NCBI GenBank assembly: GCA_016935415.1
Contig: JAFGRA010000186.1
Location: forward strand, 1 to 44,203
Reading direction: 5' to 3'
DNA length: 44,203 nucleotides
From: Anaerolineales bacterium
GTDB lineage: Bacteria; Chloroflexota; Anaerolineae; Anaerolineales; UBA11579
Shown here: one piece after another, positions 8,224 to 13,835 of the stretch
Layout: each line of letters begins with the position of its first letter
How positions within the stretch are numbered: position 1 is the first letter of the stretch
Made by a program: the position numbers and the translations under genes
Notes under the pieces: model-generated
Database searches by the model: none
What the model saw: the letters and a program-made list of their open reading frames with translations, nothing else
What the model was told of the DNA's origin: nothing

Positions 8224-9570
8224 TCAGCTCAATCCGCGCGCATCAATCGCCGCCATCACCGCATCGTAATCGGCGGGCAGTTCGACCGGCGGATTGGCAT
8301 AACGCGCTGAACCTTCTGCTAAGTTCCCGGTGTGGTAGGCCACCTTGAACCCGGAGAATTTCAAACCATGGGCGGTCGAGATCACCACCGCACACTCATC
8401 CGATTTAATCACGCCTTTATCCAACAGCTTGAACAACGCTCCCAAGGCCACACCGGTGTGTGGGCAAGCATACAAGCCCGTGCGATCGGCGCGCGCCGCC
8501 GCATCTGCCAACTCGGCCTCACCAACCTGCTCGACCACGCCGTCCAACTGCTGCAAGACCTTAACGGCGCGCTCGTAGCTGACCGGGTTGCCGATCTGGA
8601 TGGCGCTTGCCAGCGTCTTCTGGGCACTGACCGGGTGGTATTGCTCGAAATGGGTCTGGTAGCTCAAGTAGAGCGGATTAGCCCTCTCGGCCTGGGCACA
8701 GGCGATGCGCGGCAGGCTGTCGATCAAGCCCAATTCCTTCATCATCAAGAAACCGTTGCCGATGGCGCTGACGTTGCCCAGGTTGCCGACCGGCAGCACG
8801 ATCCAATCCGGCACCTGCCAATCGAACTGCTTGACGATCTCGAAGGCCACTGTCTTCTGGCCTTCCATGCGCAGCGAGTTCATCGAATTCGCCAGATAAA
8901 TGGTGGGGTCTTCGGTAAGCTGCTTGACGATCTGCATGCAGCCATCGAAGTCCGTATCCAATGAAAGCACTGTAGCCCCGTTGGCAATCGGCTGGATAAG
9001 CTGCGCGGTGGAGACCTTGTCGCGCGGCAGCAAGATCACCGCCGGGATTCCGGCCGCGGCTGCGTAGGTCGCCAGCGCCGCCGAGGTATCACCGGTCGAG
9101 GCACAGGCCACTGCCCGAATCGGCTTCCCCTGCTTGAGCATCTGATGAACGGCCGAAACCAACACCGTCATGCCTAAATCTTTGAAGGAACCGGTGTGGC
9201 TGTTGCCGCACATCTTGACCCACAAGTCGGGCAGGCCGATCTGCGCCCCTAAGCGGTCGGCGCGGAAGCAATTGGTGTTGCCTTCGTACATCGAGATCAC
9301 ATTTTCGTTTTCGAGCACAGGCAGCACCCATTCCTTGTAACCCCATACCCCGCTGCCATAGGGAAAATCATTGCTGCGCGTGCGCCCATCGAAGAGCGCT
9401 TTCCATTCTGCTGCACTGGTCTGGCGCAGGGCATCCATATCGTGGGCCACGTTGAGCAGCCCGCCGCAGTCTTCGCAGCGGTAAACGACATCGAAGACCG
9501 AATAGCGCCGCCCGCAGCCGCGCACACACTCGAACCAGCAATCGTAGGCCGGTAGTGAACCGTTTTGCAT
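8224..9570 (-). CDS. thrC: Threonine synthase
   Basis: N-term zinc-ribbon-like CxxC region, PLP-enzyme motifs [13 protein letters not shown]...[44 protein letters not shown] 9570 has an SD (GGAGG); the track's upstream ATG 9600 overlaps the preceding stop. Confidence 0.92.
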
Positions 9571-9599
9571 TGTATCTCCTCCGTTTTTCCCCGCAGTCA

Positions 9600-10733
9600 T
9601 CAGTCTGCGCCTACCGCGTGAGTTTGAATTTCGTGGATCGCCAGGTAACCCTCGGCGCGCTGTTCAGGCGTGGGCACCGAGGCTTCCGGCGGCTTATCGG
9701 ACAGCGAGAACAGCAGCGCGCCCTGCTTCTTCCAGGCTTCGGCCGCCAGGCGCACTTCCTGCGTCAGCACGATCTCCTCCTGCAACATACGCTCGACTGG
9801 CGCATCGTCCGGCAGATTTCCCAACCAACTGGTTGTAACAATGAATTCGTTCTGGCGAAAAGCCTTGAACGGGGTTGGGTCGCCTTTTTGCACATTGACG
9901 AACACATCACCATGCACCTGCCGCAAATTTCCCGGCAGTTCTGCCAGGCGTTCGGCCACTTCACCAATGAACTGCGGGAAACTTGCCATCCTCCCGGCGT
10001 TCACTGCTTCGGCCAGTTCGTCCCGCCCGTACAAACCGGCGCTGACCATCAGGCAAATGTAGGTCAGGTAATCCTGGTTGTCGGTCGTGAAGGGATGATA
10101 CTCTTGCTGATTGAACAAATCGTAAGCCGCCTTGAAACTTTCTGGGTCGAAATCATCACCCAGCAAAACTTCGACCGTGCGATGGGCCGCCACGACGCGC
10201 GCCCGGTCGATGACCTTGTCATTGCGGCCGCGCGCCCCCAACAATGTCTTGTCCAGATCGATCAACACGACCGTGTGTTCATCAATGGTCAAGCCGCGCG
10301 CTTGCAGGAAGGCGTTGAAGCGTTCCAGGTCAGCCCAACGGTTGGCATAATAGATTGGCGCGCTGGAAGGCTCCTGGGAAGCCACAGTCACTTTTTGCGG
10401 GCTTTCGCTGCCAATGAAGGCAAAACCGCGCCAGCCCCCGGCGTTGAAGATATTGGTAAAAGCGGTGCCGTCGTTCATGCGCGTATCCCCGACATACACT
10501 AACTTTTCGATGGGTACGCGCAGGCCGCGCTGGCGTTGGGCTTCCTCTAGTAACGCCACCATGATCTGGGCATATTCGACTGAAGTTTTGCGGGGGATGG
10601 CAATCCCGGGCCAACCGGCGCGCTCGCTCAGTTCAGCAAAGCGCGGCAGGCGAGTATCCATAGCCTGCATATCGCGGTAAACCAGGTTATCGCCGAGGAT
10701 ATCACTTACTGAAATGCGCTCGTAGACTTTCAT
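9600..10733 (-). CDS. HAD-superfamily-like protein with permuted motif order
   Basis: RKTSVEYAQ...[16 protein letters not shown] (motifs III/IV-like, residues 48-92) precede [12 protein letters not shown] (motif I, 155-166) and [17 protein letters not shown] (motif II-like, 335-351). Confidence 0.7.
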
Positions 10734-12438: not shown

Positions 12439-12861
12439 ATGAACGTATATTTTGCCTGTTCGATCACCGGGGGACGACAAGATGCCGGCGTTTATCAGAT
12501 CATCGTGGACGCCATGCAAGCCGCCGGGCACGAAGTCCCCACCGCGCTGCTCGCCTGCGAAAAGGTTGTCGACCTGGAAATCGTCGTCGAACCGGAGGAA
12601 GTGTACACGCGTGATGTGGCCTGGATCGATGACAGCGATGCCCTGGTCGCCGAGGTGAGCACGCCCTCGCACGGCGCCGGTTACGAGATCGCCCATGCCC
12701 TACGCAAGGGCAAGCCGGTGTTGTGCGTGCACCGGGCAGGCGTGCTGGTCTCCAAGATGCTGACCGGCAACACCCACGCCAACATTTCCATTCGTGCGTA
12801 TCAGTCAGATGCCGAAGCCGCCCGGATCGTGATCGATTTCCTCAAAGCATTAGAAGATTAG
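12439..12861 (+). CDS. Nucleoside 2-deoxyribosyltransferase-like / DNPH1-like nucleotide hydrolase
   Basis: VYFACSITGGRQD N-terminus; DALVAEVSTPSHGAGYEIAHALRKGKPVLCV. Confidence 0.8.
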   Translation: MNVYFACSITGGRQDAGVYQIIVDAMQAAGHEVPTALLACEKVVDLEIVVEPEEVYTRDVAWIDDSDALVAEVSTPSHGAGYEIAHALRKGKPVLCVHRAGVLVSKMLTGNTHANISIRAYQSDAEAARIVIDFLKALED

Positions 12862-12863
12862 CT

Positions 12864-13835
12864 ATGGGCGAGTCCTTCGCTCCCGAAACCCTCGAAGCAA
12901 TTTTTCTGGCGCAGGTCGCCGCCGACCCGAGCAGCCTGCACTTCTCGCCGGTGCGCACCGGCAAACACAACAGCTCGTTCTGGGTGCAGAGCAACCGCGG
13001 CAAATTCGTGCTGCGCATCGCCCCGCCGGATGACGCCGGTTTCCTGTTCTACGAGCGCCTGATGATGCGCCAGGAACCTGAACTGCACACCCTAATCGGA
13101 GTGCAGACCGAGATCCCGATTGCCAAAATCGTCGGGCATGATTTCAGCCGGGAGCAGATCGCCCGCGACTATCTGGTGATGGCAGCCTTGCCGGGCACGC
13201 CGCTGAGCGACGCCCATTGGCTGGGACAATCGATACTCAACCGCGCCCTCTACCAGGTTGGCGAGCACCTGCAAGCACTCCATAGCTTGACCGCCACCGA
13301 ACACCTGGGCCAACGCTCCTACGGCTATCTGGGCGCACACCATCCGATGGAGCCCCAACCAACCTGGTGGGAAGCTTTCCGGGTGATGTGGCATAAACTC
13401 CTCGACGATGTGGTAGCCTGCGGAAGCTACACCGATTTCGAAGCCGACCACCTGCGCGCCTTGCTCGACCGGCACCAGGAACACTTCCAGCACGCCGTTG
13501 AGCCGCACCTGCTGCACATGGACGTATGGGGCCAGAATATTCTGATCGACGAACACGGCAACGTGACCGGCCTGGTCGATTTTGACCGGGCGCTATGGGG
13601 CGATGTGGAAATCGAGTTTGCGGTGCTGGATTACTGTGGGATCAGTGAACCGGTTTTCTGGGAAGGCTATGGGGCTGAACGCGATGCGTCCCACGCCGCC
13701 CAGATCCGCCGCCAGTTCTACCTGCTCTATGAAATCCAGAAATATATGCCGATCCGCGTCTGGCGGCGCAACAACCCTACCGAAGCCGCCCGCTACAAGG
13801 AATACAGTTTTCGGGTGGCCGCCGCGCTGGAATAA
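12864..13835 (+). CDS. Aminoglycoside phosphotransferase (APH)-family protein
   Basis: Begins 2 nt after the preceding stop (MGESFAPETLEAIF). HMDVWGQNILIDEHGNVTGLVDFDRALWGD is the APH catalytic/DFG-like motif. Confidence 0.85.
   Translation: MGESFAPETLEAIFLAQVAADPSSLHFSPVRTGKHNSSFWVQSNRGKFVLRIAPPDDAGFLFYERLMMRQEPELHTLIGVQTEIPIAKIVGHDFSREQIARDYLVMAALPGTPLSDAHWLGQSILNRALYQVGEHLQALHSLTATEHLGQRSYGYLGAHHPMEPQPTWWEAFRVMWHKLLDDVVACGSYTDFEADHLRALLDRHQEHFQHAVEPHLLHMDVWGQNILIDEHGNVTGLVDFDRALWGDVEIEFAVLDYCGISEPVFWEGYGAERDASHAAQIRRQFYLLYEIQKYMPIRVWRRNNPTEAARYKEYSFRVAAALE

What the first reader, a model, noticed from the sequence alone, without database searches (positions are those of the whole stretch)
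9600..10733. Apparent circularly permuted HAD protein inside the threonine pathway operon
Canonical HADs run motif I (DxDxT), II (S/T), III (K), IV (GDxxxD). Here the N-terminal half holds III/IV-like [11 protein letters not shown]...[16 protein letters not shown] and the C-terminal half holds [12 protein letters not shown], a long cap-like region, then II-like [17 protein letters not shown], after which the protein ends. The order III-IV-I-II is what a circular permutation would produce.
Basis: partly seen in the sequence, partly recalled or inferred. Interest (0 to 1): 0.75.

Follow-up and report, generated by a model that had tools for sequence, protein, structure and literature searches.

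The report
Circularly permuted HAD, likely homoserine phosphorylator
A bacterial phosphate-handling enzyme has the four signature pieces of a huge, well-known enzyme family (HAD), but with the front and back halves of the chain swapped, and it occurs in just those relatives that lack the usual threonine-pathway enzyme homoserine kinase, so it probably does that job.

Summary
The ORF at 9600-10733(-), 377 aa, sits in an overlapping aspartokinase / ORF / threonine synthase operon and belongs to an unannotated family (no Pfam, NCBIfam or PDB match). In 74 homologs K49, D83, D88, D159, D161 and S345 never vary: the four HAD motifs, in the order III-IV-I-cap-II. Profile tests support circular permutation: block I+II matches HAD motifs I-II, block III+IV matches HAD motifs III-IV, and the re-permuted order gives one end-to-end alignment (global score 32.9; native 19.0; shuffles 4.2±2.9). 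AlphaFold2 gives one compact fold (pLDDT 95.6, pTM 0.92). Foldseek, a sequential method, finds no match, and no coordinates were available, so active-site geometry is untested.

Function: 0 of 52 carriers have a strong homoserine kinase ThrB, against 212 of 347 non-carriers (p≈1e-19, relatedness only partly controlled), with both states inside three genera. Carriers tested keep homoserine dehydrogenase (32/32) and threonine synthase (31/32). Best explanation: a permuted HAD that makes O-phosphohomoserine, working like Pseudomonas ThrH but not a member of that family. Reaction and phosphate donor are inferred, and one genome has another proposed homoserine kinase beside it.

The parts
9600..10733 (-). 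Permuted HAD-like protein (377 aa), called pHAD here
   Evidence: ORF; 53/399 genomes of the order (52 clear) and 29/399 of the phylum sample carry a homolog; AF2 pLDDT 95.6, pTM 0.92
10587..10595 (-). Motif III: P47-R48-K49, followed by helix 52-68
   Evidence: R48 and K49 invariant in 74 homologs; aligns to the HAD motif III 'KP' region
10470..10505 (-). Motif IV: strand 77-82, then G82-D83-T84...D88
   Evidence: G82, D83, D88 invariant; GDTENDR in family f36; strand 77-82 in the model
10299..10430 (-). Equivalent of the canonical HAD C-terminus: strand 102-108, strand 127-130, helix 133-145, now joined by a short linker to motif I
   Evidence: AF2 secondary structure; the global alignment reaches HAD column 157 of 158
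10245..10274 (-). Motif I: strand 154-159, D159-x-D161-K162-T163 (D159 = presumed nucleophile)
   Evidence: D159, D161, K162 invariant in 74 homologs; aligns to HAD motif I
9777..10235 (-). All-helical cap of about 150 aa (167-319) with conserved R168-G-R170, H213, T216, D218-N-Q-D221, T287-P288, F292-R293, E296
   Evidence: AF2 helices; invariant columns; no resemblance to the HAD core by profile (score 12.7, inside the shuffles)
9690..9716 (-). Motif II: strand 340-344, then S345-D346-K347-P348
   Evidence: S345-P348 invariant; aligns after motif I as in HADs once the cap is left out
8224..9600 (-). Threonine synthase ThrC, downstream, 1-base overlap
   Evidence: TIGR00260 240 bits
10730..12145 (-). 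Aspartokinase, upstream, 4-base overlap
   Evidence: TIGR00657 416 bits

Best explanation
The gene encodes a circularly permuted HAD-superfamily enzyme. The ancestral C-terminus (last strand and helix) is joined to the ancestral N-terminus (motif I), and new ends were opened between motif II and motif III, so the order along the chain is III-IV-I-cap-II. It most likely supplies O-phosphohomoserine to threonine synthase in place of the missing homoserine kinase ThrB. Proposed mechanism: Asp159 takes a phosphoryl group from a donor (unknown; ATP, pyrophosphate, an acyl phosphate or a phosphoester such as phosphoserine) as an aspartyl-phosphate, with Mg2+ held by Asp159, the Asp161 backbone and Asp83, and with Ser345 and Lys49 holding the phosphate. 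Asp161 then activates the homoserine hydroxyl held by the helical cap, giving O-phosphohomoserine. Shown here: motifs, their conservation and order, profile support for permutation, operon context, and mutual exclusion with ThrB. Inferred: 3-D juxtaposition of the motifs, catalysis, donor and acceptor. Sub-claim confidence: permuted HAD 0.85; supplies the homoserine-phosphorylation step 0.65.
For: Permutation: four complementary HAD motifs, all invariant; block profiles match HAD I-II (score 30.6, shuffles 12.2±2.8) and HAD III-IV (32.4, shuffles 12.3±2.5); permuted order global 32.9 against native 19.0 and shuffles 4.2±2.9; rotation scan peaks only when opened between motif IV and motif I; unrelated ThrC, Asd and AK profiles give nothing; single confident AF2 fold with the expected helix-strand(IV)-helix-strand ... 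strand(I)-cap-helix-strand(II) succession. Function: TIGR00191 ThrB over cut-off in 0/40 carriers vs 32/40 non-carriers; in the order sample 0/52 vs 212/347, Fisher p=9.7e-20, with both states inside genera g16, g31 and g102. Homoserine dehydrogenase in 32/32 carriers; a ThrC above 200 bits in 31/32 carriers and 10/10 ThrB genomes but only 3/37 genomes with neither. pHAD lies next to aspartokinase, Asd and/or ThrC in nearly all loci, and follows homoserine dehydrogenase and Asd in L048 and L050. ThrB in non-carriers often lies next to ThrC. APH-type homoserine kinase over cut-off in 0/80 genomes, ApgM-type in 2/80. Precedent: ThrH, a HAD, makes phosphohomoserine by phosphotransfer (PMC1079889).
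Against: Foldseek found no significant PDB or viral match for the full model, nor a PDB match for the III-IV fragment; a sequential method could miss a permuted chain, but the fragment search gave no positive support either. No coordinates, so active-site geometry is unmeasured. G100 carries pHAD directly beside an ApgM-type proposed homoserine kinase over cut-off, so at least one genome has both. G382's only copy (L050) has lost K49, D83, D88 and D159 although that genome has no strong ThrB. Sub-threshold APH-family kinases exist in f36 carriers, and the shikimate-kinase-like homoserine kinase of PMC5764234 was not searched for. HADs are mostly phosphatases, and no donor is known. Shared ancestry of the genomes is only partly controlled.
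Confidence: 0.62

Rival explanations
1. A circularly permuted HAD, but a plain phosphatase that hydrolyses a phosphorylated intermediate or damage product of the aspartate/threonine pathway, or regulates it, rather than making phosphohomoserine.
For: Most HADs are phosphatases; a full phosphatase residue set is present; same operon context; coexistence with an ApgM-type homoserine kinase in G100.
Against: Does not explain 0/52 vs 212/347 mutual exclusion with ThrB or why carriers keep Hom and ThrC without a known homoserine kinase.
Confidence: 0.2
2. Not a HAD: an unrelated Rossmann-like protein with convergent DxDxT and GDxxxD loops.
For: No Pfam HAD model matches above threshold; Foldseek shows no HAD among the best 50 matches.
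Against: Two independent blocks each match the complementary half of a HAD profile far beyond shuffles, and unrelated profiles do not match; all four catalytic motifs are invariant.
Confidence: 0.12
3. The threonine step is done by another, unrecognised kinase (for example APH-family or shikimate-kinase-like), and pHAD serves a different branch of the aspartate family such as methionine or lysine.
For: Sub-threshold APH-family hits in f36 carriers; an APH-fold kinase lies at 12726-13835(+) in this window; a shikimate-kinase-like homoserine kinase is known in Desulfovibrio (PMC5764234).
Against: The APH hits also occur in ThrB genomes G001 and G005; the window APH gene is on the other strand and scores 22.8 bits against a cut-off of 271; pHAD is the recurrent gene between Asd or aspartokinase and ThrC.
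Confidence: 0.15
4. Two truncated HAD fragments fused by a frameshift, gene fusion or assembly artefact.
For: The order III-IV then I-II could arise by fusing two broken genes.
Against: Same full-length architecture in dozens of genomes of several families; one AF2 fold with pTM 0.92.
Confidence: 0.01

Closest known systems
HAD superfamily C1-cap phosphatases (reference set: HADs of the same genome group, found with PF00702)
   Same: DxDxT, S/T, K and GDxxxD motifs; helical cap inserted between motifs I and II; strand-helix context
   Different: Motif order III-IV-I-II instead of I-II-III-IV; a larger cap with no detectable similarity; Pfam HAD models do not recognise it
ThrH of Pseudomonas aeruginosa (phosphoserine:homoserine phosphotransferase)
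   Same: HAD catalytic residues; proposed product O-phosphohomoserine
   Different: ThrH has canonical order (my own knowledge of the family); no NCBIfam match of pHAD to any such model; its donor phosphoserine is untested for pHAD
ThrB homoserine kinase (GHMP fold, TIGR00191)
   Same: Pathway position near ThrC; mutually exclusive genomic distribution
   Different: No NCBIfam match of pHAD to it; different fold
ApgM-type proposed homoserine kinase (TIGR02535), ThrB2/BT2402 (PMC9026213) and shikimate-kinase-like DvMF_0971 (PMC5764234)
   Same: Each is a non-orthologous replacement for ThrB
   Different: Different families; pHAD matches no NCBIfam model

Membership tests
HAD superfamily | Motif I DxDx[T/V] after a strand | tested here: met
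   strand 154-159, DLDKT; D159, D161 invariant
HAD superfamily | Motif II Ser/Thr after the second strand | tested here: met
   strand 340-344, S345 invariant
HAD superfamily | Motif III Lys before the helix that precedes motif IV | tested here: met
   K49 before helix 52-68
HAD superfamily | Motif IV GDx3-4D after a strand | tested here: met
   strand 77-82, GDTRxND or GDTEND
HAD superfamily | Motif order I-II-III-IV along the chain | tested here: not met
   order is III-IV-I-II; only the re-permuted profile aligns end to end
HAD superfamily | Recognised by HAD family models | tested here: not met
   no Pfam or NCBIfam hit for the query; one member at E 0.16 for PF00702
HAD superfamily | HAD Rossmannoid sheet (order 3-2-1-4-5) with the four motifs meeting at one site | tested here: inconclusive
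   secondary structure fits; Foldseek found no match; no coordinates available
ThrH | Canonical-order HAD recognised by its family model | tested here: not met
   permuted order; no NCBIfam match
ThrH | Phosphoserine-to-homoserine phosphotransfer | not testable with these tools
   needs an enzyme assay
ThrB / TIGR02535 / TIGR00938 homoserine kinases | Match to the family model | tested here: not met
   no NCBIfam match

The most novel reading that the evidence does not exclude
This is a naturally circularly permuted HAD family, a topology for which no description was found here, that works as a bona fide homoserine kinase or phosphotransferase, possibly using ATP directly, and that has displaced ThrB repeatedly across a bacterial phylum.
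Probability: 0.4. Interest if true: 0.88.

Novelty: new variant of a known kind. Interest (0 to 1): 0.74.

Why it matters
HADs are one of the largest phosphoryl-transfer superfamilies and are described with one motif order; a conserved natural permutant would show that the fold tolerates new termini between motifs II and III, and would explain why annotation pipelines miss it. The phylogenetic profile also fills a specific gap: how many genomes with homoserine dehydrogenase and threonine synthase but no homoserine kinase make threonine. Both claims are directly testable with a laboratory E. coli thrB strain and a crystal structure.

Tried and rejected
1) Foldseek of the full model against PDB and BFVD and of the III-IV fragment (residues 40-149) against PDB: no match with E<=0.001; uninformative about permutation. 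2) Profile comparison with the cap left in: only motifs III-IV aligned and rotation made no difference, because the cap breaks the local alignment; hence the de-capped core. 3) Degenerate or fused-gene reading: rejected by conservation and AF2. 4) ApgM-type and APH-type homoserine kinases as the general explanation for missing ThrB in carriers: over cut-off in only one carrier and none, respectively. 5) viral-contig scans failed three times; plasmids and phages gave no homolog. 6) Literature searches for a permuted HAD found nothing relevant except the general HAD-CheY relation; the library is open-access only, so this is weak evidence of novelty.

Full report
WHAT IS THERE. The ORF at 9600-10733(-) encodes 377 aa. 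Its ATG overlaps the aspartokinase stop by four bases and its TGA overlaps the ThrC start by one base, so the three genes form a packed operon; the neighbours are confirmed by NCBIfam. Neither Pfam, NCBIfam nor PDB sequences recognise the protein, and searches with 46 or 34 family members do no better.

FAMILY. Homologs were found in 53 of 399 genomes of the same order at E<=0.01 (52 after setting aside one weak hit, G270) and 29 of 399 of a phylum-wide sample. One GTDB record is titled Chloroflexia, so the phylum is probably Chloroflexota. In 74 aligned members the following never vary: R20, R48, K49, G82, D83, D88, W133, D159, D161, K162, R168-R170, R179, H213, T216, D218-D221, T287, P288, F292, R293, E296 and S345-P348 (the degenerate copy L050 was excluded). 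K49, G82-D83...D88, D159-x-D161-x-T163 and S345 are the catalytic residues of HAD motifs III, IV, I and II. In the divergent family f36 motif IV is GDTENDR, the textbook GDxxxD spacing.

IS IT A CIRCULAR PERMUTATION? I built a profile of 38 ordinary HADs taken from the same group of genomes, left the cap out of both families, and compared profiles with hhalign. The I+II block scored 30.6 at HAD columns 6-54 and the III+IV block 32.4 at columns 78-128; sixty column shuffles of each gave 12.2±2.8 and 12.3±2.5 and never reached the observed score. In global mode the permuted order scored 32.9 over 153 of 158 columns, the native order 19.0 over 81, shuffles 4.2±2.9. Opening the circle at every fifth residue gave 30-38 for start points between residues 86 and 156 (after motif IV, before motif I) and at most 27 elsewhere. 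ThrC, Asd and aspartokinase profiles gave background scores. With the cap left in, the test is blind. AlphaFold2 on the 46-sequence alignment gave pLDDT 95.6 and pTM 0.92. The succession helix 52-68, strand 77-82 (IV), helix 87-99, strand 102-108, strand 127-130, helix 133-145, strand 154-159 (I), helical cap, helix 325-336, strand 340-344 (II), strand 371-375 is what a HAD cut between motifs II and III and rejoined end to end would give. The refutation condition 'two independent incomplete domains' is therefore not met. The other condition, distance of the DLDKT Asp from K49/D83, could not be measured. Foldseek found nothing for the whole model or the 40-149 fragment; this is expected for a permuted chain with a new cap but leaves the fold assignment resting on sequence.

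WHAT DOES IT DO? Around the homologs, the neighbours are aspartokinase, aspartate-semialdehyde dehydrogenase and threonine synthase in nearly all loci, with homoserine dehydrogenase as well in L048 and L050. The missing step of that pathway is homoserine kinase. ThrB (TIGR00191) exceeds its cut-off in none of 40 carriers and in 32 of 40 non-carriers. In the order-wide sample 0 of 52 carriers and 212 of 347 non-carriers have a strong ThrB (Fisher p=9.7e-20). Relatedness inflates that p-value, but both states occur inside genera g16, g31 and g102, and the protein tree mixes families, so replacement or transfer probably happened several times. Homoserine dehydrogenase is in 32/32 carriers. A ThrC above 200 bits is in 31/32 carriers and 10/10 ThrB genomes, but only 3 of 37 genomes with neither; the ApgM-type genome G024 also has one (the 200-bit line was drawn by me after seeing the scores). 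Other homoserine kinases do not account for this: TIGR00938 exceeds its cut-off nowhere, TIGR02535 in one carrier and one non-carrier. In 9 of 12 ThrB loci examined ThrB sits beside ThrC, much as pHAD does in carriers.

MECHANISM (inferred). By HAD chemistry, Asp159 would be phosphorylated by a donor and the phosphoryl passed to the homoserine hydroxyl. ThrH of Pseudomonas aeruginosa, a HAD, does this from phosphoserine and is not an ATP-dependent kinase (PMC1079889). The donor here is unknown.

LOOSE ENDS. G100 has both pHAD and an ApgM-type proposed homoserine kinase side by side. G382's only copy lacks most catalytic residues. Shikimate-kinase-like homoserine kinases (PMC5764234) were not searched. 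Distribution outside this phylum was not tested.

NOVELTY. No circularly permuted HAD was found in the searched literature, an open-access library only. I file it as a new variant of a known kind: HAD chemistry, non-canonical order, with a likely role as a replacement homoserine kinase.

Noticed in passing
L050:3036-4175 (genome G382): A full-length pHAD copy in which K49, D83, D88, D159 and several cap residues are replaced together, as in a dead enzyme, while the ORF stays open; that genome has no strong ThrB.
   Followed up: partly
L014:246-1631 (genome G100): An ApgM-type proposed homoserine kinase (TIGR02535 over cut-off) lies directly downstream of pHAD, between it and ThrC; the only carrier seen with both.
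   Followed up: partly
L009:1498-2646 (genome G086): pHAD split by one in-frame TAA; may be a pseudogene, a sequencing error or a split gene.
   Followed up: no
37 genomes with neither ThrB nor pHAD, e.g. G027, G036, G048: Most lack a ThrC above 200 bits too, keeping only weaker ThrC-like paralogs; possible threonine auxotrophs or another route.
   Followed up: partly
window:12726-13835 (+): APH-fold small-molecule kinase near the operon on the opposite strand; weak resemblance to homoserine kinase II (22.8 bits, cut-off 271).
   Followed up: partly
L170 (genome G024): ThrC, an ApgM-type proposed homoserine kinase and a short ThrB-like reading frame in a row, as if ThrB were being displaced.
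   Followed up: partly
window:5521-8031 (-): 836-aa protein that by eye looks like a MalT-type regulator: P-loop ATPase, repeats and a C-terminal LuxR-like helix-turn-helix.
   Followed up: no
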